The notes under the pieces are model-generated. The model was not told the origin of the DNA, did not search any database, and saw nothing but the letters and a program-made list of their open reading frames with translations. 21,348 nt of DNA. It comes from Pseudomonadota bacterium. GTDB lineage: Bacteria > Pseudomonadota > Alphaproteobacteria > Rhizobiales > Rhizobiaceae. The stretch is taken from positions 1 to 21,348 of the forward strand of contig JAEYTV010000076.1 in NCBI GenBank assembly GCA_023433855.1. The letters run 5' to 3'. How positions within the stretch are numbered: position 1 is the stretch's first letter; each line of letters begins with the position of its first letter. The position numbers were made by a program, and so were the translations under genes. This document shows, in pieces, positions 1,409 to 20,542 of the stretch.

Positions 1409-1787
1409 GCCATTGGCGGCCCGTTGGTCGTACCGTCAGGAATTCCCGATCATTCCGGACCCGTCACCTCTCCAATCGTCATCAAGCCGTCCTGCCGCTC
1501 GTGCTTGCTCCACCGCAAAGAAGCATGTCGGCGCCGGCGGCACGTCTCGGCGTTCTGCCTGATCTGCGCGTCGGCTCTCATGCAACTGGCGGCATAATCG
1601 ATCCGCAGGCCTAGGGCTATCTTGTCGCTGGTGCCGCGCTATGCTGGATTGGCGGCGGGAGATGTTTCCTGCTGTCTTCATTCGGAGCTTGCAACGCCCT
1701 ACCCCGAGACCCGTCTTCAGTGCGTTGCGCCCGCAACCCGAGCTGAACCACCGCACCTTAGCGTGCGAAGATATGCGAGAGACCAAG
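1409..1787. other. Gene-poor intergenic stretch
   Basis: About 380 bases between the TctA stop and the DUF6522 start. Both strands carry open frames here (for example a minus-strand frame across 1436-1969), but their translations are Arg/Ser/Pro-rich and low in recognisable motifs, as shadow frames are. No tRNA fold or strong terminator hairpin is evident. It may hold the promoter of the DUF6522 gene or an eroded gene remnant. I can support neither. Confidence 0.5.
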
Positions 1788-2054
1788 ATGCAGATTGAAC
1801 GTGATGGAACTGGCGACTTCATCTTGGAACCAACAGAACTTGCCGGCAAGTTTGGTCTTGCGGCAGAGGATTTTCGCCAGAAGATCCGGCTCGGCATGGT
1901 GACGAGTACAGTGGAACGCGGAGAAGGCGAAGACGCCGGAACATGCCGCTTGAGCGTGAGGATCGGCAACCGAGCCTGGCGTGCGATCCTTGATGATCAC
2001 GGTCAGGTCTTGAGCGAAGGGGTCAGCATAGTGCGGGGCCCCAGGCGTCCCTAG
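1788..2054 (+). CDS. DUF6522 family protein
   Basis: Small soluble protein of 88 residues, function unknown. It fits the short alphaproteobacterial family I know as DUF6522: an N-terminal MQIERDGTGDFILEP segment, a helical LAGKFGLAAEDFRQKIRLG region, then MVTSTVERGEGEDAGTCRLS and a final strand-rich part ending near ILDDHGQVLSEGVSIV. I chose the ATG at 1788 because family similarity begins there. The frame is open back to 1641, and an ATG at 1773 would add five residues. It stands alone between the TctA gene and a convergent AraC-type gene 34 bases beyond its stop. No signal peptide or membrane segment is seen. The family assignment comes from memory of its pattern, so moderate confidence. 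Confidence 0.7.
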   Translation: MQIERDGTGDFILEPTELAGKFGLAAEDFRQKIRLGMVTSTVERGEGEDAGTCRLSVRIGNRAWRAILDDHGQVLSEGVSIVRGPRRP

Positions 2055-2088: not shown

Positions 2089-2979
2089 TCACACCCCCGC
2101 TGGCTCGTCCACGCTGAGGCCCTTGGCTACAGACACCCGAAACTGCCTCGGCGTTTTGCCGGTCCGCCGTTTGAAAACGTCGTAGAACCGGCTGCTGGAT
2201 CCAAAGCCGCAATCGTGTGCTATCTCCAGGATCGCATCGCCGGTTTCCGCGAGGCGCTGCATGGCTCGGGCAATCCGATACCGCGTCAGATACTCCATAA
2301 CAGACATGCCGAGAACCGTGCGAAAGGCCTTGTTGGCAGTCGTGGGATGAAGGTGGGCGAGCTTCGCGATATCTCCAAGGCTCAGTGGTTCGGCAAAGCG
2401 TGTGTTGATGAGGCTTGTCAGCGCCTCGGCATGTCTGACTGCCGCGCTTACAGGTGTGGCGGACGCTACCCCCGCCTTTGTCCCCTCCTCCATATAGTCC
2501 AGGATCAGACGGCGGACCAGGAGTTTAACCTCATCTTCGACGAGCTGACGGCGGCCAGCAACGCCCCCTTCCCATTCCTCGAACCATTGTGGACCGGTCG
2601 CTCCGCGTGGCTGCTCTGGATATGGATCCGTTATGAATACGCCCCCCATGATCAACCGCCTTGCTGCCTCGCCCAAAGGCAAGGCCAGGAACTCCACCAG
2701 CGGCAGGTAGATGCAGATCAGCGGCGCCTCGGGCGTGACGTTGATCGTCTGATGGGGGATGGCTGCCCAGAACAGGACGATACGACCTGCCCCCACTCGC
2801 TCCTGGCGCCCGTTGAAGAGATAGGTCATCTCTCCTTCCAGAAGTAAGTTGATCTCGACGTGGTCATGCCAGTGGGCCGTGGCCATGGCGTCGGCTAGAT
2901 GGCGCTCGATCAGGAACGCGGCAGGGGACGCCGCCCAGGCGCTGGATTCCTCAACGTCCTTCCACTTTGCCGTTCGCAT
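2089..2979 (-). CDS. AraC-family transcriptional regulator, MelR-like
   Basis: DNA-binding regulator of 296 residues with an N-terminal cupin-like effector domain and a C-terminal double helix-turn-helix AraC domain (about residues 185-285). The segment HWHDHVEINLLLEGEMTYLF followed by GRIVLFWAAIPHQ matches the pattern in E. coli MelR (HWHGQVEVN, ITLFWACTPHQ). The C terminus carries the signature GFGSSSRFYDVFKRRTGKTP. It is divergent from the GH4 alpha-galactosidase gene with 90 bases between the starts, the same partnership as melR and melA in enterobacteria. It probably activates the galactosidase gene in response to an alpha-galactoside or its product. The ATG at 2979 precedes the conserved block by a normal distance, although its ribosome binding site is weak. 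Confidence 0.88.
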   Translation of the reverse strand: MRTAKWKDVEESSAWAASPAAFLIERHLADAMATAHWHDHVEINLLLEGEMTYLFNGRQERVGAGRIVLFWAAIPHQTINVTPEAPLICIYLPLVEFLALPLGEAARRLIMGGVFITDPYPEQPRGATGPQWFEEWEGGVAGRRQLVEDEVKLLVRRLILDYMEEGTKAGVASATPVSAAVRHAEALTSLINTRFAEPLSLGDIAKLAHLHPTTANKAFRTVLGMSVMEYLTRYRIARAMQRLAETGDAILEIAHDCGFGSSSRFYDVFKRRTGKTPRQFRVSVAKGLSVDEPAGV

Positions 2980-3020
2980 AGCTCAGATCCGGGAAACCAT
3001 CCTCTGAATTCCGGAAGAAG

Positions 3021-3033
3021 TTCTGCCTCAGAA
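3021..3033. promoter_or_regulatory. Inverted repeat in the regulator/galactosidase intergenic region
   Basis: TTCTG-cct-CAGAA, five-base arms with a three-base spacer, in the 90-base divergent region. It is a possible operator but short enough to occur by chance. AraC-family sites are often direct repeats instead. Confidence 0.2.
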
Positions 3034-3069
3034 GTGCGACAAGAGCAACGGACCTGATGCGGAGTTACC

Positions 3070-4386
3070 ATGCCAAAGATCTGTCTTGTCGGTGCGGGCA
3101 GCACCGTATTTGCCCAGAACATTCTCGGCGACGTGCTTTCCTCCTCTGGAGGCGATGACTATGTCGTAAGCCTGTTCGACATCGATCCGGAGCGACTGAG
3201 AACCTCGGAGGTCGTCGCAAGACGCATCTGTGAGGCTCTCAATCTTCACGCAGTGAGGGTCGAGGCGACGCTGGATCGCCGCAGCGCTTTGCAAGGCGCC
3301 GATTTCGTGATCCTGATGATGCAGGTGGGCGGCTATAAACCGGCCACGGTGACGGACTTCGAGATCCCTAAGAAGTACGGCCTTCGCCAAACCATCGCTG
3401 ACACACTAGGCATCGGGGGCATTTTTCGCGGATTGCGCACCATCCCGGTTCTCCAGGCGATCTGTCGCGACATGGAAGAGGTCTGCCCGAATGCTCTCCT
3501 GATGCAATACGTCAACCCGATGGCCATCAATTGCTGGGCAATCAAGGAACTGGCGCCGAGTCTTCAGACCGTGGGCCTTTGTCATAGCGTGCAACACACG
3601 GCCGCCCACCTCGCCACTTGCCTCGGCGAAAACCTTTCCGACATCAACTACATATCGGCCGGCATCAACCATATCGCGTTTTTCCTGAAATATGAGAAGG
3701 TGATGCCGACGGGAGAACGGCAGGACCTCTATCCGCGTTTGAAGGCGCTTGCGTCCGCCGGCCAGATTCCAGCCGACGACCGGGTGCGATTCGATGTCCT
3801 GAAAAGGCTCGGCCATTTCGTGACCGAATCCAGCGAGCATTTTTCCGAATATACCTCCTGGTATATCAAGGACCGGCGGCCCGACTTGATCGAGGATCTT
3901 AACATCCCGCTCGACGAATACATTCGTCGTTGTGAGGTCCAGATCGCAGAATGGCACGCCCTGCGGCAGGAACTCGAGGGCGAAAAGCCGATCGAGGTCT
4001 GCCGAAGCAACGAATATGCCGCCGGGATCATCCATGCCGCCGTTACCGGTTATCCCGCCCTCGTTTATGGCAATGTGCCAAACCATGGTCTGATCGAGAA
4101 CCTGCCGCCCGAATGCATCGTCGAAGTTCCCTGCCATGTCGACAGGAACGGCATTCAACCGACGCGGATCGGGAAGATCCCTGCCCAGCTTGCGGCCGTC
4201 ATGAAGTTGTCAATCTCGGTGCAGGAACTGACGGTCGAAGCGGCACTGACAAAAAAGAGGGATCGTATCTACCAGGCCGCACTGCTTGATCCGCATACAT
4301 CGGCGGAACTGTCGCCAGACCAGATCTGGTCGCTGGTGGATGATCTCATTGATGCCCATGGGGAGCTTCTGCCGGCCTACCACTGA
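3070..4386 (+). CDS. melA: GH4 family alpha-galactosidase (MelA type)
   Basis: Cytoplasmic glycoside hydrolase of family 4, which uses NAD+ and a divalent metal (usually Mn2+) and cleaves by oxidation-elimination. It has 438 residues; E. coli MelA has about 451. Visible motifs: the nucleotide-binding start ICLVGAGSTVF (4-14), VGGYKPATVTDFEIPKKYGL (86-105), QTIADTLGIGGIFRGLRTIP (107-126), YVNPMAINCW (147-156), GLCHSVQ (169-175) and GINH (198-201). Cys171 and His201 are the expected metal ligands. The ATG at 3070 has GGAG five bases upstream. These blocks follow MelA rather than GH4 phospho-glucosidases or glucuronidases. There is no signal peptide, so the substrate must be imported. A terminator follows and the amino-sugar operon starts about 170 bases later, so alpha-linked galactose or galactosamine are both plausible leaving sugars. 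Confidence 0.9.
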   Translation: MPKICLVGAGSTVFAQNILGDVLSSSGGDDYVVSLFDIDPERLRTSEVVARRICEALNLHAVRVEATLDRRSALQGADFVILMMQVGGYKPATVTDFEIPKKYGLRQTIADTLGIGGIFRGLRTIPVLQAICRDMEEVCPNALLMQYVNPMAINCWAIKELAPSLQTVGLCHSVQHTAAHLATCLGENLSDINYISAGINHIAFFLKYEKVMPTGERQDLYPRLKALASAGQIPADDRVRFDVLKRLGHFVTESSEHFSEYTSWYIKDRRPDLIEDLNIPLDEYIRRCEVQIAEWHALRQELEGEKPIEVCRSNEYAAGIIHAAVTGYPALVYGNVPNHGLIENLPPECIVEVPCHVDRNGIQPTRIGKIPAQLAAVMKLSISVQELTVEAALTKKRDRIYQAALLDPHTSAELSPDQIWSLVDDLIDAHGELLPAYH

Positions 4387-4457: not shown

Positions 4458-4496
4458 GATCGAAACGATCATGTTAGATCAGTTTTCTGATTGACA
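4458..4496 (+). promoter_or_regulatory. Candidate promoter/operator region of the amino-sugar operon
   Basis: Two inverted repeats lie close together: GATCG-aaa-CGATC (4458-4470) and ATCAG-tttt-CTGAT (4478-4491). The second runs into a perfect -35 hexamer TTGACA (4491-4496). No convincing -10 hexamer sits at the usual spacing. Two GTTTCAG copies flank the region (about 4441 and 4504). DeoR-family repressors commonly bind repeats overlapping their own promoter, so autoregulation by the DeoR gene just downstream is a reasonable guess. Confidence 0.4.
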
Positions 4497-4554
4497 ATGA
4501 TTGTTTCAGATGAAATCGTGTTCCGATCAAGATCGATCCAGGGTTGGACGGGCA

Positions 4555-5349
4555 ATGAATCAGGCCGGTGGAGTGAAGACGGACAGGCTGGATTCAATTC
4601 GCAGCCATCTTTACGCCAATGGCTTTTCGACCATCCAGGCTCTCGCCGAAGCGCTCGGAGCTTCGCTGGCGACGGTCCGGCGCGACCTGCAGATACTCGA
4701 ACAGGAAGGCGTCATCGATCGCGTCCATGGCGGCGCCCGCATTGCCGAAGGTTCCTCGGTGGAATTGGCATTCCAGGAGCGCGAAAAACGTCATCTTTCG
4801 CAAAAGCGTGCCATCGCCAAGGCAGCATATGACCTGCTCGTCCCAAGGACCTCGATATTCCTCGACGCGGGCACCACGGTTCTGCAGCTTGCCCGGCTGA
4901 TCAGGCTCAATCCAATGCCGTTGCGCATCTTTACCAACGGCCTGATCGTCGCCCAGGAATTCCTCAACATCCCCAACCTGGAGGTAGCGCTCCTCGGTGG
5001 GCAACTCCGCAACGAAAACGCCTCCCTTGTAGGCCCCGAGGCGGAGGCGATGCTGGAAACGCTATGGTTCGACCAGCTCTTTCTCGGAGCGAGCGCCATC
5101 AGCCAGGATGGCGCGATCTACAGCGTCGATAGTGCGGAAGCGAGCCTCAACCGGCGCATGCTCGCGCGTTCGGCCAGCCGTTTCGTCCTGGCCGACTCTT
5201 CGAAATTCGGGATGACGGCCACCTACAAGGTCAACTCCCTGAAAAGCGTGACCATCATCACCGATGCGGCTCTTTCAGCCCATTGGCGTGCTGAGCTCAA
5301 GACTATCGAGGCCGAGGTCCTTCTTGCCGATTCCGGGGCAAGACCATGA
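4555..5349 (+). CDS. DeoR/GlpR-family transcriptional repressor
   Basis: Repressor of 264 residues, expected to sense a sugar phosphate and to control the operon it heads. The N-terminal helix-turn-helix spans about residues 25-50 (STIQALAEALGASLATVRRD). It is followed by VIDRVHGGAR, typical of the DeoR family. The C-terminal DeoRC domain begins at IFLDAGTT (101-108), the usual sugar-phosphate-binding motif. I chose the ATG at 4555 because the family normally starts a few residues before the helix-turn-helix. A TTG at 4501 and an ATG at 4510 are in frame upstream, but they lie in or near the putative promoter. Its stop overlaps the start of the kinase by four bases (ATGA), so the two are co-translated. 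AgaR of the N-acetylgalactosamine system is the closest functional analogue I would name. Confidence 0.88.
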   Translation: MNQAGGVKTDRLDSIRSHLYANGFSTIQALAEALGASLATVRRDLQILEQEGVIDRVHGGARIAEGSSVELAFQEREKRHLSQKRAIAKAAYDLLVPRTSIFLDAGTTVLQLARLIRLNPMPLRIFTNGLIVAQEFLNIPNLEVALLGGQLRNENASLVGPEAEAMLETLWFDQLFLGASAISQDGAIYSVDSAEASLNRRMLARSASRFVLADSSKFGMTATYKVNSLKSVTIITDAALSAHWRAELKTIEAEVLLADSGARP

Positions 5350-6344
5350 GCGACAATCTTATACTCGGTATAGACGGTGGGGGGAGCAAGATGCTTGTCG
5401 CCCTCGCCAACCGCGACGGAGTGATTCTGCGGGTGTCGCGCGGCGGTGGCGTCAACCCGATGGATAACCCTATGTGGGAAAAGGAGCTGCGCCAACAGGT
5501 GCAGCCATTCCTGCCGGTCCCGGGTCTAAGTGCCGTCGCAGCCGCCCTCCCGGCTTATGGAGAAGTCACACGGCTCACCAGGGCCCAGGAATCTGTCGTC
5601 GGCGATCTCTTCGGCAACATTCGCCGACGGATCCTGAATGACGTCGATGCCGCGCATCTAGGGGCGTTCGCCGGCGGCCCCGGAACACTCATCCTTTCCG
5701 GAACCGGGTCCATGGCCTGGGCCCGCAACAGCCAAGGCAAGTTCGCCAGGGTCGGTGGCTGGGGAGAGGTCATCGGCGACGAGGGTAGCAGCTACTCCAT
5801 CGGTCGATCGGCGTTAAGCCTCGTCAGCCAGAGCTTCGATGGACGGGCCAAGCCGACCGCCCTGGCCGACGCGCTCTTCGATCATCTGCGGCTCGACCCC
5901 GCGTCTCCGATCGAGGGACTTGCGGGCTGGGTGAACGAACTTGCCAGTCCACGTGCCGGAGTGGCGGCGCTTTCGGCCCTCGTGGACCGGGTGGCAAAAA
6001 CAGGCGACCATGGTGCCCTTTCCTTGATCGAGCAGGCCGGCCGGGAGCTTGCCAAACATCATCAGGCGATCACCGCCCGGTTCGAAACAGTGCCTGACTG
6101 GACCTACGCCGGAGGCACGTTCTCCAGCAGGCTTCTACAGGAAGCTGTGGAACGTCACATCGGCACCCCACCGGTCGCAGCGATACTTCCGCCAATCGGC
6201 GGCGCTCTCTTGGCGGCCGCCCAACTTCTCGGCTGGCCCATCGATGACGGCTGGCTCGGGCAGATCGCGGCCTCAGCCAGTTTCCTGGCCGCGTCAACGA
6301 ATGAAACGAGCCTCAATCATAACGAAGGATGGGAACATGCGTAA
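5346..6344 (+). CDS. BadF/BadG/BcrA/BcrD-type sugar kinase (amino-sugar kinase)
   Basis: ATP-dependent kinase of the ASKHA fold (PF01869), 332 residues, a family that includes N-acetylglucosamine kinases. Visible elements: phosphate-1 motif DGGGSK (10-15), the ND-V-D segment around 98-101, the SGTGS phosphate-binding loop (118-122), GGWGEVIGDEGSS (137-149), and an adenosine-type motif YAGGTF near residue 255. It starts inside the DeoR stop and runs eight bases into the binding-protein start, so expression is tightly coupled. Placed before an ABC importer and a SIS-domain deaminase, it most likely phosphorylates the imported sugar at C6. Galactosamine, glucosamine and their N-acetyl forms are all possible. 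The family does not settle the sugar. Confidence 0.85.
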   Translation: MSDNLILGIDGGGSKMLVALANRDGVILRVSRGGGVNPMDNPMWEKELRQQVQPFLPVPGLSAVAAALPAYGEVTRLTRAQESVVGDLFGNIRRRILNDVDAAHLGAFAGGPGTLILSGTGSMAWARNSQGKFARVGGWGEVIGDEGSSYSIGRSALSLVSQSFDGRAKPTALADALFDHLRLDPASPIEGLAGWVNELASPRAGVAALSALVDRVAKTGDHGALSLIEQAGRELAKHHQAITARFETVPDWTYAGGTFSSRLLQEAVERHIGTPPVAAILPPIGGALLAAAQLLGWPIDDGWLGQIAASASFLAASTNETSLNHNEGWEHA

Positions 6345-7608
6345 TTTCATTCTGCCTCTACTTGCTTCCGCAGCCTTGTCCATCGCCGCGCCTGCCATCG
6401 GCCAGGACGCGGCATCCGGCGGCTCGAAACCCCTTGCCGGACAATCAATCACCGTCCTGATGCCTTCGCCCCAAGGCCCCAACATCGCCGAGGACTTCGA
6501 AGCCGAAACGGGCATTCATGTCGACCTCCAGACACTTTCCTGGGATGACATTCGGCCGAAGCTAGTCACCGCTATCGTGGCCGGCACAGCACCCGCTGAC
6601 GTGACGGAGTTCGACTGGTCGTGGACCGGTCAATTCAGTGCGGCAGGCTGGTACATGCCGCTCAACGAGGTGATCGACCAGGAGACTATGGAAGACATCG
6701 GCGTCGCGAAGATCTTTACGGTCGACGGTCAGTTGCTCGGTGTCCCTTACACGAACGATTTCCGCGTCATGCTCGCGAACAAGAAGCATTTCGCCGATGC
6801 CGGCATCGGTGAAATGCCTAAGACCCTTGACCAGCTTGTCGCCGCTGCACGGCAGATCAAGGGCAAGGGGATAACGCAGTATCCGATCGGCCTACCGGTT
6901 TCGGCAACCGAGGGGGCATCCACCAGCTGGTATCTGCTGACGAAAGCGTTTGGCGGGGAGCTCTTCGACAAGGATTTCAATCCGCTTTTCACGAGCCCCG
7001 ACTCCGCCGGCTACAAGGCGCTGGCCTTCGAGCTGATGTTGCTGAAGGAGGGGCTGGTCGATCCAGCTTCGACCGGCCTCAAGGACAGCCAGATCAATGA
7101 AAGCATGTTTTCACAGGGGATCACCAGTATCATGATCTCCGGTGAGCCCGGGCGTCTCGGCCAGATGAATGATCCGAAGCAGTCGAAGGTGGCAGGTCAG
7201 GTCGAAGCCATCCTGGTGCCGACGGAAAGCGGCACAACCCGCAGCTTTGGCCTTCCCGAAGCGCTCGGCATTCCGAACGTGTCACAAAACAAGGAAGCCG
7301 CGGTTGCTTTCGTAAAATGGTTTACGAGCCGCGAATTTCAGAAGAAGAATGCCGCCAACGGTTTTCTTCCGACCCGGACTTCCGCACTCTCCGAGCTGAA
7401 CGAGAGCGGCAAGTTGACGAGTGGGGACGCGCTCGTTGCCCAGTCCAAGACCGTGGAGCCCCTGTTTCCGCAGGGCACGCCCCCGTGGTACCCGCAGTTT
7501 TCAAGCGGCGTGAACACGGCCATCAACAGTGCGGCGAAAGGCCAGATGACTGTTGAACAAGCGATCCAGAGCATCGCCGACGCTGCGAAGCAGGCAATGG
7601 CGCAATGA
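6337..7608 (+). CDS. ABC transporter sugar-binding protein (extracellular family 1)
   Basis: Periplasmic binding protein of a CUT1-type importer, 423 residues. The first ~22 residues form a signal peptide (a hydrophobic stretch ending APAIG before QDA). The mature part shows the family-1 pattern: ITVLMPSPQGP, FEAETGIHVDLQTLSWDD, TAPADVTEFD and the C-terminal AAVAFVKWFTSREFQ (about residues 320-334). I chose the ATG at 6337, with AAGGA about eight bases upstream, over in-frame readings beginning further upstream inside the kinase gene, because the signal peptide starts here. It overlaps the kinase stop by eight bases, and its own stop overlaps the first permease by four. Substrate is inferred from the neighbours: an amino sugar or a short oligosaccharide containing one. 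Confidence 0.9.
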   Translation: MRNFILPLLASAALSIAAPAIGQDAASGGSKPLAGQSITVLMPSPQGPNIAEDFEAETGIHVDLQTLSWDDIRPKLVTAIVAGTAPADVTEFDWSWTGQFSAAGWYMPLNEVIDQETMEDIGVAKIFTVDGQLLGVPYTNDFRVMLANKKHFADAGIGEMPKTLDQLVAAARQIKGKGITQYPIGLPVSATEGASTSWYLLTKAFGGELFDKDFNPLFTSPDSAGYKALAFELMLLKEGLVDPASTGLKDSQINESMFSQGITSIMISGEPGRLGQMNDPKQSKVAGQVEAILVPTESGTTRSFGLPEALGIPNVSQNKEAAVAFVKWFTSREFQKKNAANGFLPTRTSALSELNESGKLTSGDALVAQSKTVEPLFPQGTPPWYPQFSSGVNTAINSAAKGQMTVEQAIQSIADAAKQAMAQ

Positions 7609-8522
7609 CAATCTCCATCCGGGAGAATGTCCCAGCAAGGTATGGTGCCGGCGTCAGAGCCGACACCATGCTCGGCGTGCTTCTGGTCTTGCCGATCCTT
7701 TCAACAATGGCGGCCCTTGTCTTCTATCCGATGGGCCGCACCATCTGGGACAGCCTGCATCGGGTCAACCCCATGCAGGCCGGGACCCCATTCGTCGGGT
7801 TGGAAAACTACGCCCGCATGTTGTCCGACGGGCCGCTGGCTACGACCTGGGTGAACACGCTCAGTTATGTTCTCCTCGCCGTGGTTGCCGAAACCGTATT
7901 TGGAGTCCTTGCGGCAGCCTTGATCAACCAGATGAAGGTCGGACGCCGCTGGGTGCTTGCAGCAGTGGTCCTCCCATGGGCGCTGCCCGGGGTAGTCAAC
8001 TCGGTCATCTGGCTCTGGATCTATCAACCCGGCGCCGGTCTGTTGAACGGCATCCTTTCGTCGCTCGGCTTCGATTTTGACAACCACGTCTGGTTCAACG
8101 ACCGGACGAGCGCAATCATTGCAGTCACTGTGGTGCATGTGTGGCGCATGATGCCGTTGACCGTTGTCATCGTCCTTGCCGCAATGCAGAGTATTCCGGC
8201 TCATCTGTACGAAGCCGCCAGGATCGACGGGGCGACACGCCTGCAAATGTTCCGACTGGTAACGCTTCCGCTGGTTCGCAGCGCCATCGCTGTTGCGATG
8301 ACCAATGCCACTGTCAACGCGTTCAACCTTTTCGACGAGGCCTGGGTACTTTCCGGCGCGAGCCTCGAAACCCGCCCGATCCTCGTACAGATCTACCTCG
8401 AGACCTTTCAGAACCTGCGCTTTTCCTATGGCATGGCGCTTTCGGTGGTGATCACCATCGTGTCGCTCATGGTCTCGCTCATCTACGTCCTTCGCGTTTA
8501 CCGCAGCACACGGTTTGACTGA
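7605..8522 (+). CDS. ABC sugar transporter permease 1 (MalF/UgpA type)
   Basis: Inner-membrane subunit of the importer, 305 residues, with about six hydrophobic segments, the first near residues 21-42. The cytoplasmic EAA loop that docks with the ATPase is at about 203-223 (EAARIDGATRLQMFRLVTLP), which is conserved for the binding-protein-dependent permease family. The start lies inside the stop of the binding-protein gene (ATGA), and its stop shares one base with the start of the second permease. It should pair with the next gene product and with the ATPase at the end of the operon. Confidence 0.92.
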   Translation: MTISIRENVPARYGAGVRADTMLGVLLVLPILSTMAALVFYPMGRTIWDSLHRVNPMQAGTPFVGLENYARMLSDGPLATTWVNTLSYVLLAVVAETVFGVLAAALINQMKVGRRWVLAAVVLPWALPGVVNSVIWLWIYQPGAGLLNGILSSLGFDFDNHVWFNDRTSAIIAVTVVHVWRMMPLTVVIVLAAMQSIPAHLYEAARIDGATRLQMFRLVTLPLVRSAIAVAMTNATVNAFNLFDEAWVLSGASLETRPILVQIYLETFQNLRFSYGMALSVVITIVSLMVSLIYVLRVYRSTRFD

Positions 8523-9379
8523 TGACACCAAGCCTCACCTACCGCCTGCTCGTCTGGACCGGGATCGCGCTACTGCTCGTCTGGTCGCTGGGCCCCATTT
8601 ACTGGACGCTTGCAAGTTCGGTCACGCCGACAGAGGACTTCTCCGCCCGCCCGATCAACTTCTTTCCGCAGCATTTCACCTTCGATCATTATGCGCGGCT
8701 GCTCGGTATCAATGTCGGTCGCATAGGTGGCGTCGAGGTGTGGAAGCAGTTTCGCGCCGCTCTGTTCAACAGCGTGCTGACCTCGGTTGCTGCCACCTTG
8801 CTTTGCGTCGCGATCTCGGCCGTAGGTGCTTACGCCTTCACGCGGATCCGCTTCCCTGGTCGCCAGATGTTGTTTGCCGCTGTGGTGGCGACGCTGGCGA
8901 TCCCCGCTTATGCCGTGCTGATCCCGCTTTACCAGATCATGATCAAGATGCGGCTCGTCGATACCTATGTGGGCGTCGCGTTGATCTACGTCTCCGCCTA
9001 TCTGCCCCTTTCGCTGTGGCTCCTGCGCAGCGTCTTCGAAGCACTGCCGATTGCGTTGGAAGAAGCGGCTCAGCTCGATGGCGCAAGCCGGCTTTATATC
9101 CTGTTCAACATCGTACTCCCGCTTGCCGGCCCAGGCCTGACCGCGGCCGCGATCCTGACATTTTTAGGTGCCTGGGGGCAGTATCTGGTGCCGCTCATCT
9201 TTTCGCCGCAGGCAACCAAACCGCTGACTGTCCTCATACCGGAATTCGTCACCAAGAACTTCATCGACTATGGGCTGATTACCGCGAGCGGATCGATCGC
9301 GATAATCATCCCCGCATTGGTCGTCATTTTCCTCAACCGGTACCTCGTCAGCGGCCTGCTGGCGGGCTCGGTGAAATGA
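8522..9379 (+). CDS. ABC sugar transporter permease 2 (MalG/UgpE type)
   Basis: Second membrane subunit, 285 residues, with an N-terminal hydrophobic helix (about 9-31) and further segments to the C terminus. The EAA loop is at about 180-200 (EEAAQLDGASRLYILFNIVL). The N-terminal SSVTPTEDF and the PINFFPQHFTFDHYARLL segment are typical of MalG-like subunits. The ATG at 8522 uses the last base of the upstream stop codon. The following SIS gene begins 11 bases after its stop. Confidence 0.92.
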   Translation: MTPSLTYRLLVWTGIALLLVWSLGPIYWTLASSVTPTEDFSARPINFFPQHFTFDHYARLLGINVGRIGGVEVWKQFRAALFNSVLTSVAATLLCVAISAVGAYAFTRIRFPGRQMLFAAVVATLAIPAYAVLIPLYQIMIKMRLVDTYVGVALIYVSAYLPLSLWLLRSVFEALPIALEEAAQLDGASRLYILFNIVLPLAGPGLTAAAILTFLGAWGQYLVPLIFSPQATKPLTVLIPEFVTKNFIDYGLITASGSIAIIIPALVVIFLNRYLVSGLLAGSVK

Positions 9380-9390
9380 TCGGAGACATC

Positions 9391-10344
9391 ATGAACACGA
9401 CCGAGAAGGTAATCCGCGAACAGTTCCCCTACTGGGAACAAGCCATCGGCTCCAATGCGGCTACCAAGAACGCCCAGCTGCTTGTTTTTGTCGGCTGCGG
9501 CACCTCTTATAATCTGGCCTTGTCGCTTGCCGCTTATGCCAGCCAGGCCGGAAAAAAGGCGATCGCCGCGCCAGGCGGTGAATGGCTGAACAGGCCTGAG
9601 GCGTTCTGGCCCGATTGGAAAAACACCCATGTGGTCGCCCTTTCCCGCAGCGGTGAAACCACCGAGACCGTTGCGGCGGCAAAGTCGAGCCGGGCCTACG
9701 GCGCCTTTGTCACTGCCGTGACGGTTGAGCCCGACAGCTCTCTCACAAAACACTGCGATCAACTGGTATCGGCCTCCACCCATCCCGACGAAGGTATCGT
9801 CATGACTGTTTCGGCAAGTCTCATGCTGCTCCTCGGCATGCAGATGATCGGGCGGGAAATCCCTTCCTCGGCGGTGATCTCGGCGAGGCGACTTGCTGAA
9901 GCACTCGACGCGGCGCTGCCGACGGAAATCAACGGGCGCACCCATTTCGTCTTCCTCGGCAGCGGGCCCCTTTTCGGTGTCGCGCTTGAAGGCGCGCTCA
10001 AGCTGATGGAGATGAGCCAGACCATGACGCAGGCCTTTCATCCCTTGGAATACCGGCACGGGCCGATCAGGCTTGTCGATGAGAAGACGGTGGCCGTCAT
10101 GCTTTACAGCTCGGACGGGAGGGAGGCAGAGGCCAGGCTGGTGGGCGAATTGCACGACAAGGGCGCGTTTGTCATCGGTCTTGGTGGACCGGGCGATCTG
10201 GAATTGCCTGTCGATGTCGATCTTTCGCTTGCTGGCCTCGTCGTTCTCCCCGCACTGCAGATCCTCGGAGAGCGCGCAGCTCAGGCGAGGCAGATCGACA
10301 CGATATCCCCGCGTCATCTCACCAAGGTGGTGATGCTGGCATGA
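9391..10344 (+). CDS. SIS-domain sugar-phosphate isomerase/deaminase (AgaS / GlmS-isomerase-like)
   Basis: Double SIS-domain protein of 317 residues, expected to convert a hexosamine 6-phosphate to a ketohexose 6-phosphate plus ammonia. First SIS domain: VGCGTSY (34-40) and LSRSGETTET (84-93), which bind the sugar phosphate. Second: FLGSGPLFGVALEGALKLME (188-207) and EYRHGP (220-225), the last being the usual GlmS-isomerase/NagB-II motif. There is no N-terminal glutaminase domain, so it cannot act as a glutamine-dependent synthase and is most likely catabolic. I chose the ATG at 9391 (GGAG six bases upstream) over the ATG at 9376, which overlaps the permease stop but has no ribosome binding site. 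The open frame continues far upstream only as a shadow of the permease. It overlaps the next gene by four bases. Confidence 0.86.
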   Translation: MNTTEKVIREQFPYWEQAIGSNAATKNAQLLVFVGCGTSYNLALSLAAYASQAGKKAIAAPGGEWLNRPEAFWPDWKNTHVVALSRSGETTETVAAAKSSRAYGAFVTAVTVEPDSSLTKHCDQLVSASTHPDEGIVMTVSASLMLLLGMQMIGREIPSSAVISARRLAEALDAALPTEINGRTHFVFLGSGPLFGVALEGALKLMEMSQTMTQAFHPLEYRHGPIRLVDEKTVAVMLYSSDGREAEARLVGELHDKGAFVIGLGGPGDLELPVDVDLSLAGLVVLPALQILGERAAQARQIDTISPRHLTKVVMLA

Positions 10345-11639
10345 CTTCTCTCGACACGAACCGGCATGCCGCATTGGTGAAGCTTCTGGGCAAGCGGAAC
10401 CTGCCCTTGCCGCGTGGCATCGCGTCGGTCTGCTCCGCACATCCGCTGGTTGTGGAGGCGACCATGCGGCGAGCGGCGAGCGAAGATAGAGCCGTTCTGC
10501 TTGAGGCGACCTGCAACCAGGTGAACCAGGATGGCGGTTATACCGGCATGACGCCCGCCACCTTCCGGCGGTTTGTCGAAGGCATCGCAAACGCAGTCGG
10601 CTTTCCCCTCGAGCGCATCGTTTTGGGCGGCGATCACCTGGGTCCCAACCCGTGGAAGGATCAGCCGGCGGAAACTGCGATGATCAAGGCGAAAGCCATG
10701 GTCCGCGCCTATGTCGAGGCGGGTTTCGAGAAGATACACCTCGACACGTCGATGGGATGTGCAGGAGAACCGGCGGCACTCGCCGACGAACTCACCGCTC
10801 AAAGAGCCGCCAGCTTGGCCCGGGTGGCAGAAGAGGCGGCCTCACGCTCTGGCACTCGCCCCCCGGTCTACGTCATTGGCACTGAAGTTCCACCTCCAGG
10901 AGGAGCAACCCATAGGCTGGATGCGCTAGCGGTCACGCAGCGCGAAGCCGCGATCAGGACGCTTGCGGTCCATCGGTCCGCCTTTTCTGAAGCGGGTATC
11001 AACGCGGCGATCGAGCGGGTGATCGGCATTGTGGTCCAACCGGGTGTCGAATTCGGGAGCGACAATATTGCCCTGTATGAGCCCGAACGTGCCCGGGCAT
11101 TGATCTCCGCGTTGAACGACATGCCCGGCCTGGTTTTTGAGGCTCATTCAACCGATTACCAGCCGGACGAGGCACTTCGCGGACTGGTGGACGGCGGCTT
11201 CGCCATCCTGAAGGTAGGTCCGGGGCTGACTTTCGCCCTGCGCGAAGCCCTCTACGGGTTGGACGCGATGGCGAGCGCTCTGTCCTTGCAGCCGTTCGGA
11301 GGCGGGCTTGCACCAATAATGGAAAAGATCATGGTGGAGCGGCCCCAACACTGGGCGGGACACTATGGCGGATCGGCGGAAGAACAGCGCCTGCAGCGGC
11401 ATTTCAGCTACAGCGATCGTATCAGGTACTACTGGCCGGATCCGCAGGCATCGGCGGCCATCGACCGCCTCATGTCAAGCCTGCCCGAAACGATTCCTGA
11501 AACGCTGATCAGCCAATTCCTCCCCCGCATTTATTCCGATGTGATTATGAAAAGGGTCGACCCGCGTCCTCGGGATCTTTGCCTTGCCGCCATCGACGCC
11601 GCCCTGGCACCTTATTCGCTGGCAACTGCCACGCGTTAG
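10341..11639 (+). CDS. GatZ/KbaZ-like PF08013 protein, probable tagatose-6-phosphate 4-epimerase
   Basis: 432-residue TIM-barrel protein of PF08013. Conserved blocks matching E. coli GatZ are clear: SVCSAHPLVVEA, ATCNQVNQDGGYTGMTP (about 56-72), LGGDHLGPNPW, KIHLDTSMGCAGEP, VIGTEVPPPGG, VVQPGVEF, FEAHSTDYQP, KVGPGLTFALREALYGL and SDRIRYYWP. E. coli GatZ and KbaZ were described as non-catalytic partners of the class II tagatose-bisphosphate aldolase. A PF08013 member in Agrobacterium galactitol catabolism was reported to epimerise tagatose 6-phosphate to fructose 6-phosphate. No aldolase subunit (GatY/KbaY) and no PfkB-type kinase lie near this gene, so I favour the epimerase role. It starts inside the stop of the SIS gene (ATGA). 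Family is certain; the reaction is inference. Confidence 0.88.
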   Translation: MTSLDTNRHAALVKLLGKRNLPLPRGIASVCSAHPLVVEATMRRAASEDRAVLLEATCNQVNQDGGYTGMTPATFRRFVEGIANAVGFPLERIVLGGDHLGPNPWKDQPAETAMIKAKAMVRAYVEAGFEKIHLDTSMGCAGEPAALADELTAQRAASLARVAEEAASRSGTRPPVYVIGTEVPPPGGATHRLDALAVTQREAAIRTLAVHRSAFSEAGINAAIERVIGIVVQPGVEFGSDNIALYEPERARALISALNDMPGLVFEAHSTDYQPDEALRGLVDGGFAILKVGPGLTFALREALYGLDAMASALSLQPFGGGLAPIMEKIMVERPQHWAGHYGGSAEEQRLQRHFSYSDRIRYYWPDPQASAAIDRLMSSLPETIPETLISQFLPRIYSDVIMKRVDPRPRDLCLAAIDAALAPYSLATATR

Positions 11640-11702
11640 GGCGGCCCAATCCTATCGCGGCCGGACGACAAACCAGAAACCTGTAGTATCAGGAGAATGA
11701 TC

Positions 11703-12764
11703 ATGGCATCGGTCAACGTGGCAAACGCCCGCAAGAGCTACGGCCACTTCGAAGTCTTGCATGGTGTCGACATCGACATCAAGGATGGAGAGTTCGTCAT
11801 CCTTGTCGGCCCGTCCGGGTGTGGCAAGTCGACACTGCTGCGCATGATCGCTGGGCTGGAAGACATTTCAGGCGGCCGGATCGCGATCGGCGGCAAGGTG
11901 GTGAATGATGTCGCCCCCAAGGAGCGCGACATTGCCATGGTGTTCCAGTCCTACGCGCTCTATCCGCACATGACCGTCGAAGCCAATATGGGGTTTTCCC
12001 TGCGACTGGCTAAGGCCCCCAGGCAGCAGATCAAAGAGCGTGTTCGGGATGCGGCTCAGATCCTGGGACTCGAGCAGCTTCTTGACCGCTATCCCAGACA
12101 TCTGTCGGGTGGCCAGCGCCAGAGGGTAGCCATGGGGCGGGCGATCGTCCGCAACCCTCAGGTATTTCTCTTCGACGAACCGTTGTCGAACCTCGACGCG
12201 AAACTTCGCGTGCAGATGCGAGCGGAGATCAAGCAGTTGCATCAGAGGCTGAAGACTACCACCATCTATGTTACTCACGACCAGATTGAAGCTATGACGA
12301 TGGCCGACCGGATCGTCGTCATGCGTGACGGTTTCGTTGAACAGATAGGATCTCCCCTGGATCTCTATGACCGCCCCGCCAACATGTTTGTTGCAGGTTT
12401 TATCGGCTCGCCCGGCATGAATTTCGTTCGGGGCAGGATCAGCACCTCCGGTCCTGTCGAATTCATCCCGCACGGCGGAGGGCGTCTATCGCTCCCGTTA
12501 GACCTCGACCTCCCAAGAGGGACAGAGGTGGTCTACGGAGTCCGCCCGGAGCATCTCACCATCAATAAGGGGGGCACGAGAGCTGAGGTCATCATGGTGG
12601 AACCCACAGGTGCGGAGACGCAGGTGACCTTGAAGCTGGAAGCAGAGCAGATCGTTGCCAACGTGAGGGACCGGCTGGACGTCCAGGTCGGCGACGCCGT
12701 CACGGTGGCGCCGGATATCGCCAAACTGCATCTCTTCGACGCAGAGACGACAAAACGTCTTTGA
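11703..12764 (+). CDS. ABC transporter ATP-binding protein (UgpC/MsmK/MalK type)
   Basis: Energy-coupling ATPase of the sugar importer, 353 residues. Walker A GPSGCGKST (36-44), Q-loop VFQSYALYPH, signature LSGGQRQRVAMGRAIVRNP, Walker B VFLFDEPLSNLD and the H-loop VTHDQIEAMT are all intact. The C-terminal ~120 residues fit the MalK-type TOBE/OB regulatory domain (VYGVRPEHL). I chose the ATG at 11703 because AGGAG lies seven bases upstream; the ATG at 11697 is only one base from it. A 63-base gap, without an evident terminator, separates it from the PF08013 gene, so it is probably the last gene of the same transcript. Confidence 0.93.
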   Translation: MASVNVANARKSYGHFEVLHGVDIDIKDGEFVILVGPSGCGKSTLLRMIAGLEDISGGRIAIGGKVVNDVAPKERDIAMVFQSYALYPHMTVEANMGFSLRLAKAPRQQIKERVRDAAQILGLEQLLDRYPRHLSGGQRQRVAMGRAIVRNPQVFLFDEPLSNLDAKLRVQMRAEIKQLHQRLKTTTIYVTHDQIEAMTMADRIVVMRDGFVEQIGSPLDLYDRPANMFVAGFIGSPGMNFVRGRISTSGPVEFIPHGGGRLSLPLDLDLPRGTEVVYGVRPEHLTINKGGTRAEVIMVEPTGAETQVTLKLEAEQIVANVRDRLDVQVGDAVTVAPDIAKLHLFDAETTKRL

Positions 12765-13012: not shown

Positions 13013-14131
13013 CTATTTGATGGGCTGGTAAGTGACGGTGTTGTCGGCTTGTTTATTCCAGCGGTACATGATGAAGTCTTCATCGTTCCTGTCACCCTTC
13101 TTGTTAAGGGCGAAGTCCCCGATCACCGTGTGCAGCGGTTCACCGTTTTCGAGGGTTGCTGCGACCTCCTGCGGGTCGAGCGAGCCAGCTTTCTCGATGC
13201 CTTCCTTGAGGACCTGTACGGCAGCATAGGCGTATAGGGTATAGGCTTCCGGCTCGAAACCGTCCTTCTGAATTGACTTGGCAACATCCTGAGCGGCGGG
13301 GTTGTTGCGCGGGTCCGGCGCGAATGTCATCAGCGTTCCCTCTGATGCCGACCCTGCAATCGCGGCATATTCCGACGACGCTATACCGTCGCCACCGACC
13401 AGGACCGCCTTGAGCCCTTGATCCGCGGCTTGGCGGCTGAGCAGACCAGCTTCGGTATAGAGGCCCCCGAAATAGATGACATCGACCTTCGCCTCCTTCA
13501 GGCGCGTGATAAGGGCAGAATAGTCCTTGTCCCCCACGTTGATCGAATCGGCGATCACCGGAGCGATAGACGCCTGCTTGAGCGCTTTCATGACTTCTTC
13601 GGCGATTCCCTTGCCATAGGCGGTCTTGTCATCGAGGATCGCCACGCGTTTCTGGGGGAAGTTCTTCGCGATATATTCGCCCGCGACCTTGCCCTGCTGA
13701 TCGTCGCGGCCGCAAATCCTGATCGTGTTCCAGAGGTCCCGCTCGGTGTACACCGGATTTGTCGAACCTGGGGTAATTTCCAGGATGCCGTTTTCTGCAT
13801 AAACTTCCGACGCAGGGATCGAAACACCCGAATTATAGTGGCCGATCACGAAGGTCACACCTTGGCCCGCGAAGTTGTTCGCGACCGAGATGCCTTGCTT
13901 GGGATCCGACGCGTCGTCGCCATAGGACAGGGTGACCTTCTCGCCTGCTATTCCTCCTTTTGCGTTGATGTCTGCAACAGCCTTCTCCGCCCCTCGCTTG
14001 AACTGCTCGCCGACAGCGGCGTTTGGTCCCGTGAACGGCGCGCCGACGCCAACGATGATTTCGGCATGACCTGCCGCCGAAGTCAGCAAAGTTGCGGCGG
14101 AAAAGCATATGATTGAAAAGATCGACTTCAT
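13013..14131 (-). CDS. Branched-chain amino acid/amide-type ABC substrate-binding protein (LivK-like)
   Basis: Periplasmic type I binding protein, 372 residues. A signal peptide covers residues 1-23 (hydrophobic core SIICFSAATLLTSAA, cleavage after GHA). The mature part shows the Leu/Ile/Val-binding pattern: IIVGVGAPFTGPNAAVGEQF, AVADINAKGGIAGEKV, DDASDPKQG, GHYNSGVSIPAS, ITPGSTNPVYT, RICGRDDQQG, VAILDDKTAYGKG and DVIYFGGLYTEAGLL. I chose the ATG at 14131 (GGAGAG just upstream); ten in-frame codons upstream do not fit the signal peptide. No LivH, LivM, LivG or LivF gene is beside it, so it must use membrane subunits encoded elsewhere. The ligand could be a branched-chain amino acid or a related compound. 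Confidence 0.92.
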   Translation of the reverse strand: MKSIFSIICFSAATLLTSAAGHAEIIVGVGAPFTGPNAAVGEQFKRGAEKAVADINAKGGIAGEKVTLSYGDDASDPKQGISVANNFAGQGVTFVIGHYNSGVSIPASEVYAENGILEITPGSTNPVYTERDLWNTIRICGRDDQQGKVAGEYIAKNFPQKRVAILDDKTAYGKGIAEEVMKALKQASIAPVIADSINVGDKDYSALITRLKEAKVDVIYFGGLYTEAGLLSRQAADQGLKAVLVGGDGIASSEYAAIAGSASEGTLMTFAPDPRNNPAAQDVAKSIQKDGFEPEAYTLYAYAAVQVLKEGIEKAGSLDPQEVAATLENGEPLHTVIGDFALNKKGDRNDEDFIMYRWNKQADNTVTYQPIK

Positions 14132-14734
14132 CTCGCTCTCCTGTGTTGAGGCAACCTGCAATGCCGCGGCGGGCTTTCACGCGTGTTTCGAAAGAGCTAC
14201 TGGTTGGTTTCAACCGAAACAACAGCCGTACGTTGCGCATCTTTCGTAGCGGCGGGAACGTTGTCGGTCGATCCCTATTGGCGTGTTGAAACCAAAGCCT
14301 TCAGGGGACGATGTTCTCAATGTTCCCGAGGATCATCGGTCCAGCCACTTCACGACCGGCGCCTTTGCATTCGGCGCAACATATCGCGTCGTTTGTGGCA
14401 CCTGGGACATCTCACGACCGTCATCCTCGCAGAAAGGCTTACCTCATGCGACAAATGGTTAGCTGTCTCGAATCGCAAACTGGATCGAAATGGACTGGCT
14501 TGGGCCTCAGGACCCGGATCCGCCCCAATCCGGTCTTGGAAACGTGGGAACTTTGACACTGGTCTGAGCCCGGCGATCGCGTCCCAACCCTATCGCCGGT
14601 GCGGCGGGGGGAGGCAGAGACTTCCTCATCTGTTTCTGCCTCCTCCCTGCCTCAATCGTTTCTCTCCGGCTCGGAGAAGCCGACATGCCAGGCAGTTCAA
14701 CGGCAATCTCCTGCTTACCTGAAGGTCATGAGCG
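14132..14734. other. Long divergent intergenic region
   Basis: About 600 bases between the binding-protein start (-) and the EcfG-type promoter (+). An open plus-strand frame across 14183-14722 exists, but it is rich in Arg, Cys, Trp and Ser without recognisable motifs or a ribosome binding site, so I do not call it. The region should hold the promoter of the minus-strand gene and contains the stem-loop at 14611-14642. Confidence 0.5.
14611..14642. other. Long stem-loop in intergenic DNA
   Basis: GAGGCAGAGAC (14611-14621) and GTTTCTGCCTC (14632-14642) pair over 11 positions with one G-U wobble and a 10-base loop. Neither side has a clear T-run. It could be the terminator or body of a small RNA, or an mRNA leader structure. 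Confidence 0.35.
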
Positions 14735-15766: not shown

Positions 15767-16684
15767 TCAGCGGATTTCGGAGTTCCACCGGCCACACACC
15801 GTGCTGATCGCTTGCAGCAACGCTGCAGCTGACGGACGCAGAAGACCCCTGCGACGGCGGTAGATGCGAAAGGTTCGGCGCCATTGGAGGTCGGTGACTG
15901 GCACCGGGACAACCTCATGGCGCTCCAGTTCACCCCGCATCAGCGGCTTCGGCATCCAACAGTAAAGACCTTGTTCCAGCACCGCTAGTTTGATGACCTG
16001 TTTAGATCTGGAGGTGATCACCGGCGCCTTGGGTTCCAGAAACCGCTCCTGAAAACGCCTTTGAAATTCCTTGGTCGTGGGCGCCCCGCGGGGCGGCATC
16101 GCCCATTTCAGCCCCGCCGCAACCTCAAGGCTCACCGCATCTTCATCGGCAAGGGGGTGGCCTGCGCGTCCAAACACCGCCACAACATCGCGCAACATTT
16201 CGGGAACTGCGAGCGCGATGTCATCATCCAGGTATGCCTCCGGGGAAATGGCGATATCGATATCACCATGCTTCAAGGCATCGAGAATGCGATCCTCCAG
16301 ATCCTCGATGATCTGATATTGCACATCCGGGTAACGCATCTGCATCTCGGCGACCGCGGCCACTATGAACCCACTGACGCTGCCCACGCCACCCACTCGT
16401 ACGACACCTCTGCTAGCGCCGCGCATTTCGTTGATAACGTCACCAGCGCCTGCCGCTTCGGAAACAATGAGCTTGGCGTAGGGAAGAAGCGCTTCGCCAA
16501 AGATGGTCGGAATGACACCCCGTGTGGTGCGCTCGAATAGCGACACGCCGTAGCTTGCCTCCAGCCGTTGCAACATACGGGTGATGGCGGGCTGCGTCAT
16601 GTTGAGGGCCGCCGCAGCTCCCCCCAGACTACCCTTTCGGGCACATTCCAGGACAACGGCTGCGGAGCGAACATCCAGGGTCAT
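15767..16684 (-). CDS. LysR-family transcriptional regulator
   Basis: 305-residue LysR-type regulator. The N-terminal winged helix-turn-helix (about residues 5-60) is clear: SLGGAAAALNMTQPAITRML followed by LEASYGVSLFERTTRGVIPT. The rest is the substrate-binding domain that senses a small-molecule inducer (for example VRVGGVGSVSGFIVAAV and GDIDIAISPE). I chose the ATG at 16684; a TTG at 16711 would add nine residues lacking family character. It is divergent from the decarboxylase/aldehyde-dehydrogenase pair, the usual place for a LysR activator of those genes, and would respond to a pathway substrate or intermediate such as an aromatic 2-oxo acid. Its C terminus converges with the small secreted-protein gene, about 50 bases apart. 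Confidence 0.92.
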   Translation of the reverse strand: MTLDVRSAAVVLECARKGSLGGAAAALNMTQPAITRMLQRLEASYGVSLFERTTRGVIPTIFGEALLPYAKLIVSEAAGAGDVINEMRGASRGVVRVGGVGSVSGFIVAAVAEMQMRYPDVQYQIIEDLEDRILDALKHGDIDIAISPEAYLDDDIALAVPEMLRDVVAVFGRAGHPLADEDAVSLEVAAGLKWAMPPRGAPTTKEFQRRFQERFLEPKAPVITSRSKQVIKLAVLEQGLYCWMPKPLMRGELERHEVVPVPVTDLQWRRTFRIYRRRRGLLRPSAAALLQAISTVCGRWNSEIR

Positions 16685-16728
16685 GTCTTTGTGTAATGGG
16701 TCTGGTCCCAATCTTCAATTCCAACGAC

Positions 16729-16742
16729 ATAGCTTTGCTGTA
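16729..16742. promoter_or_regulatory. Candidate LysR box
   Basis: T-N11-A motif (T16730 to A16742) with imperfect dyad ATAGC-ttt-GCTGT, in the 91-base region between the LysR start and the decarboxylase start. The position fits a regulator-binding site controlling both genes, but the motif is loose. Confidence 0.35.
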
Positions 16743-16775
16743 ACATTCGCCGTGAACAGCGCATGGGAGAGCGGT

Positions 16776-18383: not shown

Positions 18384-18389
18384 ACAGCC

Positions 18390-20366: not shown

Positions 20367-20542
20367 GCTGTATCCTCCCAATCCAACGTCGTTTCTTGCC
20401 GACAACCTTGATGACCGCAGTACATCGTCACCAAACCGGAATGCAACCCGCCTTTGCGAGCGACCAAGCCATGATCCCGTTCATCTATGAAAGGGCTATC
20501 GGGCTCCGCCACCACGTTACGCTTTAACACAAAGAAACATTT

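What the first reader, a model, noticed from the sequence alone, without database searches (positions are those of the whole stretch)
4555..12764. Compact amino-sugar operon that may run galactosamine to fructose-6-P through a PF08013 epimerase
Seen: DeoR repressor, BadF-family kinase, CUT1 ABC importer, SIS isomerase/deaminase without a glutaminase domain, and a PF08013 protein in one transcript. Known: AgaS-type SIS proteins turn galactosamine-6-P into tagatose-6-P, and a PF08013 protein in Agrobacterium was reported to epimerise tagatose-6-P to fructose-6-P. Inferred: the steps join into a three-enzyme route (kinase, deaminase/isomerase, 4-epimerase) that bypasses tagatose-1,6-bisphosphate. 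I do not know of this combination being described for galactosamine.
Basis: partly seen in the sequence, partly recalled or inferred. Interest (0 to 1): 0.7.

Follow-up and report, generated by a model that had tools for sequence, protein, structure and literature searches.

The report
Galactosamine-eating operon with overlooked glycosidase
A soil-bacterium gene cluster most likely imports galactosamine (or a sugar chain containing it) and turns it into ordinary fructose-6-phosphate in three steps; each step has precedents and a similar route was already predicted for another rhizobium, but the linked, specialised alpha-glycosidase next door is unexplained.

Summary
The operon is real and conserved. 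Evidence: the 33 genomes found by searching for this SIS protein all encode PF08013 (2 only as fragments), within 6 kb of SIS in 22 of 33. SIS-linked PF08013 genes do not form one clade (AU p=0.002), which fits repeated pairing with one SIS lineage. A Gluconobacter operon holds SIS, PF08013 and kinase beside NagA and a classical NagB. No genome of 29 has a tagatose-bisphosphate aldolase over the family cut-off. Catalytic residues are intact. Corrections: the SIS protein is not AgaS-type (77.9 bits, cut-off 529), and its nearest solved relatives are glucosamine-6-P deaminases. Galactosamine catabolism through what I infer to be a PF08013 gene was predicted for Sinorhizobium meliloti in 2016, with non-orthologous upstream genes. 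That GH4 groups apart from four ordinary GH4s (62-87% against 53-56% identity to the window's) and lies beside SIS in several layouts. Most novel reading: it releases galactosamine from alpha-galactosaminides. Verdict: new variant of a known kind.

The parts
2089..2979 (-). AraC-family regulator, MelR-like
   Evidence: HTH_18 84 bits, Cupin_2; best NCBIfam MelR 153.5 bits, below cut-off 253; divergent to GH4 in the 11 full-operon loci
2980..3069 (.). AraC-GH4 intergenic control region with conserved GGGAAT...GGAAGAAAT direct-repeat block
   Evidence: 17-locus alignment; function inferred
3070..4386 (+). GH4 glycosidase of a SIS-operon-linked subfamily (CHSVQ at residue 171); proposed to release the kinase's substrate from an alpha-galactosaminide
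   Evidence: PRK15076 643 bits, cut-off 486; in plasmids 66 records at 80-90%, 1 at 60-80%, 476 below 60%; one group against 4 ordinary GH4s
4467..4503 (.). Conserved GATCA-repeat box around TTGACA (4491-4496): probable DeoR operator and -35 box
   Evidence: 17-locus alignment; function inferred
4555..5349 (+). DeoR-family repressor
   Evidence: HTH_DeoR + DeoRC; AgaR model 165.9 bits, below cut-off 260; start supported by alignment
5346..6344 (+). BadF-family sugar kinase (proposed amino-sugar 6-kinase)
   Evidence: PF01869 84.8 bits; nearest solved MurNAc/GlcNAc kinase 8zo3, 97 bits
6337..7608 (+). CUT1 ABC solute-binding protein
   Evidence: SBP_bac_1; best pSymB match is the S. meliloti binding protein at 783752-784816, 29%
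7605..8522 (+). ABC permease 1
   Evidence: BPD_transp_1
8522..9379 (+). ABC permease 2
   Evidence: BPD_transp_1
9391..10344 (+). SIS-domain amino-sugar-phosphate deaminase/isomerase (proposed GalN-6-P to tagatose-6-P)
   Evidence: PF01380; GlmS-numbered E481, K485, E488, H504, K603 present in 34 of 34 clade members
10341..11639 (+). PF08013 protein (proposed tagatose-6-P 4-epimerase)
   Evidence: TIGR02810 595.3 bits, cut-off 568.8; GatZ C20, E44, D87, H88, E171, H257, K279 present in 99 of 99 sequences
11697..12764 (+). UgpC/MalK-like ABC ATPase
   Evidence: NF008653 506.6 bits, cut-off 432

Best explanation
A DeoR-controlled operon for a galacto-configured 2-amino sugar, most likely galactosamine. 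The CUT1 transporter imports it, or a glycoside of it. The BadF-type kinase makes the 6-phosphate. The SIS protein deaminates and isomerises galactosamine-6-P to tagatose-6-P plus ammonia. The PF08013 protein inverts C4 to give fructose-6-P, so no tagatose-6-P kinase or bisphosphate aldolase is needed. The adjacent, probably separately regulated GH4 enzyme may supply the sugar by cutting an alpha-glycoside. Shown here: gene content, residues, conservation and co-occurrence. Inferred: every substrate and every reaction.
For: (1) PF08013 is encoded in 33 of 33 genomes found by searching with the SIS protein (PF08013); in 2 of the 33 only fragments on short contigs. It lies within 6 kb of SIS in 22 of 33 genomes, three of these cut by a contig end (recount). 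(2) SIS sequences group as one clade (88/92), but SIS-linked PF08013 genes do not: 10 label changes, 4 forced by well-supported branches, AU p=0.002, as expected if that activity was paired with the SIS lineage more than once. (3) Gluconobacter L079: SIS-PF08013-kinase-permease-NagA-NagB, with NagA and NagB over their cut-offs, next to a GH20 gene. This points to amino sugars and leaves SIS a substrate other than glucosamine-6-P. (4) Tagatose-bisphosphate aldolase TIGR01858 is over its cut-off in 0 of 29 genomes. (5) E. coli GatZ and KbaZ are reported as C4 epimerases: PMC11907403, sections 13-14 read; the residues named there are conserved in 99 of 99. (6) SIS catalytic residues conserved in 34 of 34. 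(7) In the 11 genomes whose SIS operon lacks PF08013 the gene lies elsewhere; in 3 of those 11 loci it sits beside a PfkB-like kinase gene (one confirmed by Pfam).
Confidence: 0.65

Rival explanations
1. Glucosamine operon: the kinase makes glucosamine-6-P and the SIS protein converts it straight to fructose-6-P; PF08013 serves another sugar or is a passenger.
For: Best-scoring solved relatives of SIS are glucosamine-6-P deaminases. S. meliloti SM_b21217 was assigned as glucosamine kinase from fitness data, and the binding protein at the locus where I place SMb21216-21221 is the best pSymB match to the window's. In 11 of 33 genomes PF08013 is not adjacent.
Against: A glucosamine route needs no C4 epimerase, yet PF08013 is in 33 of 33 genomes and was paired with SIS more than once. 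The Gluconobacter operon already carries NagB. The linked glycosidase scores as an alpha-galactosidase.
Confidence: 0.15
2. Neutral galactose route: GH4 releases galactose from alpha-galactosides, the kinase makes galactose-6-P, the SIS protein acts only as aldose-ketose isomerase to tagatose-6-P, and PF08013 gives fructose-6-P.
For: The GH4 gene scores as alpha-galactosidase and is linked in several layouts; no deacetylase in the operon; a BadF-fold hexokinase is among the kinase's solved relatives (2e2n).
Against: Nearest solved kinase and SIS relatives act on amino sugars; Gluconobacter context is NagA/NagB/GH20; three ordinary GH4s looked at sit in other kinds of operon; GH4 is near SIS in only 9 of 33 SIS genomes.
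Confidence: 0.15
3. PF08013 acts as the classical non-catalytic subunit of a tagatose-1,6-bisphosphate aldolase encoded elsewhere.
For: NCBIfam names TIGR02810 as the non-catalytic subunit.
Against: TIGR01858 over its cut-off in 0 of 29 genomes (weaker matches in 19 of 29, best 223 bits); E. coli GatZ/KbaZ reported as epimerases.
Confidence: 0.03

Closest known systems
E. coli aga/kba pathway for galactosamine/GalNAc (AgaS, KbaZ, KbaY, PTS)
   Same: Galactosamine-6-P to tagatose-6-P by a SIS protein, with a PF08013 gene and a DeoR-family repressor nearby (gene order seen; chemistry from PMC12118421 passages)
   Different: ABC import plus kinase instead of PTS; SIS protein of another clade; no KbaY-type aldolase over the cut-off in 29 related genomes
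S. meliloti predicted galactosamine pathway (Smb21216-21221 with Smb21373-21374), PMC4961836
   Same: CUT1 transporter, kinase and SIS gene for galactosamine, then the inferred PF08013/PfkB pair
   Different: Upstream genes, as I place them on pSymB, are not orthologous (binding protein 28-29%, SIS not matched at E 1e-3); PF08013 at another locus; no GH4 mentioned in the section read; made as a prediction
Tagatose-6-P 4-epimerase of galactitol/altritol pathways (Agrobacterium/Sinorhizobium; cited in PMC11907403; primary paper not held, recalled)
   Same: Same PF08013 family and proposed reaction; the S. meliloti pSymB protein is 63% identical
   Different: There the substrate comes from polyols/tagatose (recalled), with a PfkB-like kinase gene beside it in S. 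meliloti, not from an amino sugar
Glucosamine-6-P deaminases of the GlmD/NagB-II type (1j5x, 2cb0, 8fdb)
   Same: Fold and, for 1j5x and 2cb0, the catalytic residues
   Different: Scores far below their equivalog cut-offs (112.5 against 580; 54.7 against 430); separate clade; paired with a C4 epimerase
MelA-type GH4 alpha-galactosidase with MelR
   Same: Divergent AraC-GH4 pair, CHSVQ motif, PRK15076 over cut-off
   Different: SIS-linked members are 62-87% identical to the window's, four ordinary GH4s 53-56%; no MelB gene

Membership tests
GatZ/KbaZ-like (PF08013, TIGR02810) | Score over curated cut-off | tested here: met
   581.5 bits over 26.7; 595.3 over 568.8
GatZ/KbaZ-like (PF08013, TIGR02810) | Proposed metal and catalytic residues of GatZ | tested here: met
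   7 of 7 present in window and in 99 of 99 sequences; residue list from PMC11907403
Tagatose-6-P 4-epimerase | Converts tagatose-6-P to fructose-6-P | not testable with these tools
   needs enzyme assay
AgaS family (TIGR02815) | Score over curated cut-off 529.2 | tested here: not met
   77.9 bits
GlmD glucosamine-6-P deaminase (NF041128) | Score over curated cut-off 580 | tested here: not met
   112.5 bits
NagB-II (NF046059) | Score over curated cut-off 430 | tested here: not met
   54.7 bits
GlmS-type SIS deaminase/isomerase | Glu481, Lys485, Glu488, His504, Lys603 (GlmS numbering; roles recalled) | tested here: met
   34 of 34 clade members
BadF-type N-acetylglucosamine kinase NagK (NF046058) | Score over curated cut-off 370 | tested here: not met
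   75.9 bits; Pfam PF01869 itself met
GH4 alpha-galactosidase (PRK15076) | Score over curated cut-off 486 | tested here: met
   643 bits
GH4 alpha-galactosidase (PRK15076) | Acts on alpha-galactosides | not testable with these tools
   substrate unknown; groups apart from 4 ordinary members
E. coli-type aga pathway | KbaY/GatY aldolase encoded | tested here: inconclusive
   0 of 29 related genomes over the TIGR01858 cut-off, but the window's own genome is not held

The most novel reading that the evidence does not exclude
The SIS-operon-linked GH4 subfamily is an NAD-dependent alpha-galactosaminidase. The cluster salvages alpha-linked galactosamine oligosaccharides (such as fragments of fungal galactosaminogalactan or bacterial Pel), splits them inside the cell and runs the released galactosamine to fructose-6-P through a tagatose-6-P 4-epimerase, bypassing tagatose-1,6-bisphosphate.
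Probability: 0.27. Interest if true: 0.65.

Novelty: new variant of a known kind. Interest (0 to 1): 0.45.

Why it matters
Galactosamine is an integral part of bacterial and fungal biofilm polymers (PMC11014887, abstract read), so it should be a common amino sugar in soil. This cluster gives a concrete, testable marker for its use in rhizobia and other Hyphomicrobiales: a SIS clade, a PF08013 gene and a GH4 subfamily. It also shows PF08013 being paired more than once with an amino-sugar pathway, which supports its re-reading as an epimerase rather than an aldolase helper, and it names a GH4 subfamily whose substrate may be misannotated.

Tried and rejected
Rejected: SIS as AgaS. Rejected as orthologue: the S. 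meliloti operon that I place as SMb21216-21221. Of 4 SIS search hits in S. meliloti 4H41 I opened 2: L102 (BadF kinase, GntR, SIS, NagA-like) and L094 (GntR and SIS, with a BadF gene just upstream by the coordinates); both look like GlcNAc loci. The chromosome of strain 1021 was not searched. Led nowhere: the Pelagibacterium amidohydrolase is Amidohydro_2, not NagA. GH114 endo-galactosaminidase (PF03537) is in only 2 of 29 genomes (2 of the 14 with a linked GH4, 0 of the 15 without), so self-sufficient polymer degradation is not implied. Structure searches with the binding-protein model did not separate mono- from oligosaccharide binders. The Verticillium galactosaminogalactan paper gave no occurrence of Rhizobium or carbon source. 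Promoter and terminator scans gave no excess. Literature searches; no title or abstract start in the listings showed this operon or a GH4-galactosamine link, but most subscription papers are not held and supplements could not be read.

Against my reading, found late: an order-wide sample brought 10 further genomes with no PF08013 beside SIS, besides G111; all 11 have it elsewhere. For the tree, 19 of 99 PF08013 rows, judged near-copies by eye, were dropped; 10 rows from short loci were left unlabelled for the 9-change count, and counted as unlinked in the 10-change count and AU test. The unlinked rows come from the 80 best hits to the window's protein. The SIS tree has very long reference branches, so the placing of references is unsure.
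Full report
WHAT IS THERE. The window carries eight genes on the + strand from 4555 to 12764: DeoR repressor, BadF-family kinase, CUT1 binding protein, two permeases, SIS protein, PF08013 protein and a UgpC-like ATPase. Genes overlap or lie at most 11 nt apart as far as PF08013, then 57 nt to the ATPase gene. Among 80 loci fetched with the PF08013 protein, 11 (L001-L010, L029) hold the full ten-gene order with AraC and GH4; the same order is in R. johnstonii 3841 pRL12, R. leguminosarum WSM1325, Sinorhizobium sp. B11 and Rhizobium sp. WYJ-E13.

CONTROL SITES. An alignment of 17 loci shows a conserved box of GATCA repeats around TTGACA before DeoR and a different repeat block before GH4; several loci (not all) appear to have a hairpin with a T run after GH4 (by eye). 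I infer that GH4/AraC is a separate transcription unit and DeoR controls the rest. The consensus scan of the window found no promoter excess (4 found, 2.7 expected) and no terminator excess (4 found, 8.5 expected).

WHY A GALACTO-CONFIGURED AMINO SUGAR. A glucosamine-6-P deaminase gives fructose-6-P directly, so a C4 epimerase is needed only for a galacto-configured substrate. I therefore searched with the SIS protein, not with PF08013: 11 of 297 genomes of the family, 2 of 385 of the class and 22 of 397 of the order had it, 33 different genomes with 34 loci. PF08013 is encoded in 33 of 33, in G1029 and G1071 only as fragments on short contigs. It lies within 6 kb of SIS in 22 of 33 genomes (23 of 34 loci), three of them cut by a contig end. 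In the other 11 it is elsewhere in the genome; in 3 of those 11 loci it sits beside a PfkB-like kinase gene (L155, L156, L159; L155 confirmed by Pfam), as in S. meliloti pSymB. The background rate of PF08013 in the order was not measured, which weakens this point.

REPEATED PAIRING. The SIS proteins group as one clade (support 88/92, 34 rows against 8 references), but the 33 SIS-linked PF08013 rows of the tree do not: the label needs 10 changes, at least 4 forced by well-supported branches, and one clade is rejected (AU p=0.002). These 33 rows come from both PF08013-first and SIS-first searches and are not the same set as the 33 genomes above. The unlinked rows come from the top 80 hits to the window's protein, so sampling is uneven.

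THE GLUCONOBACTER OPERON. L079 holds DeoR(-), then SIS-PF08013-kinase, a GluP/NagP-like permease, NagA (TIGR00221, 231 over 225.65) and NagB (TIGR00502, 258.7 over 236.9), with a GH20 gene on the other strand. An operon with its own glucosamine-6-P deaminase also carries SIS and PF08013, which points to galactosamine-6-P as the SIS substrate. The SIS there is 48% identical to the window's, so transfer is by homology. It is one case.

NO ALDOLASE ROUTE. Tagatose-bisphosphate aldolase TIGR01858 is over its cut-off in 0 of 29 genomes (28 with the SIS operon and S. meliloti 4H41; weaker matches in 19, best 223 of 443.55 bits); 1 of 14 control genomes is over it, and the output does not say which. 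Of the 22 order-wide genomes only 3 were among the 29.

GH4. GH4 lies near SIS in 9 of 33 SIS-first genomes and in several layouts: upstream of DeoR behind AraC, between SIS and the ATPase (L117, L125) or after SIS (L142), and beside AraC on the far side of DeoR (L135, L138, L139). In plasmids, 66 records have a match of 80-90% identity, 1 of 60-80% and 476 below 60%. The 8 displayed records of 80% or more have the SIS or kinase gene of this operon about 1-5 kb away, by comparing coordinates; the other 58 were not checked. Outside plasmids the linked set reaches down to 62% (L142). Four ordinary GH4s (53-56% identical) group apart from 23 SIS-linked ones; three of the four were looked at in context: an ABC-transporter operon with two GH4 genes, melR-GH4-melB, and an operon with galactonate-pathway genes. 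That the linked GH4 acts on alpha-galactosaminides is my inference. Galactosaminogalactan and Pel as sources are suggestions from abstract starts in the listing; only 2 of 29 genomes carry a GH114 gene.

WHAT IS ALREADY IN PRINT. diCenzo et al. 2016 (PMC4961836, section 8 read) predicted D-galactosamine transport by Smb21216, Smb21219-21221 (and potentially Smb21135-21138) and metabolism by Smb21217, Smb21218, Smb21373, Smb21374. By gene order I place the first set at pSymB 778.7-785 kb; the record held has no annotation. There the binding protein is 28% identical, the permeases 35%, and the window's SIS gave no match at E 1e-3, so that set is not orthologous. pSymB has one PF08013 gene, next to a PfkB-like kinase gene, identical by eye over the aligned part to solved structure 3txv. 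PMC11378808 (passages) calls SM_b21217 a glucosamine kinase from fitness data. PMC6421345 (passages) says an R. leguminosarum binding protein probably binds galactosamine because galactosamine induces the S. meliloti orthologue; I could not tell whether that is this operon.

VERDICT. It is a new variant of a known kind. The GH4 link is the least expected part.

Noticed in passing
window 15767-19850: LysR gene divergent from a TPP-dependent decarboxylase-like gene and an aldehyde dehydrogenase gene; looks like a mandelate/benzoylformate-type unit (recalled).
   Followed up: no
window 2-1408: TctA tripartite tricarboxylate transporter gene cut by the window's left end.
   Followed up: no
window 1641-2054 and 19908-20405: Domains of unknown function DUF6522 and DUF3237.
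   Followed up: no
window 13013-14161 (-): Periplasmic binding protein of the Peripla_BP_6 type; no transporter gene recognised among the neighbours scanned.
   Followed up: no
L117 14359-15456: Pelagibacterium version of the operon carries an Amidohydro_2 gene near GH4 and a binding protein that the window's did not match.
   Followed up: partly
L125 13410-16358: Second CUT1-type transporter follows the GH4-containing version of the operon.
   Followed up: partly
   Followed up: yes
window SIS residues 130, 217, 239: Invariant residues of the clade (T130, H217, Y239) that differ from nearly all reference SIS enzymes compared; candidates for C4 specificity.
   Followed up: no
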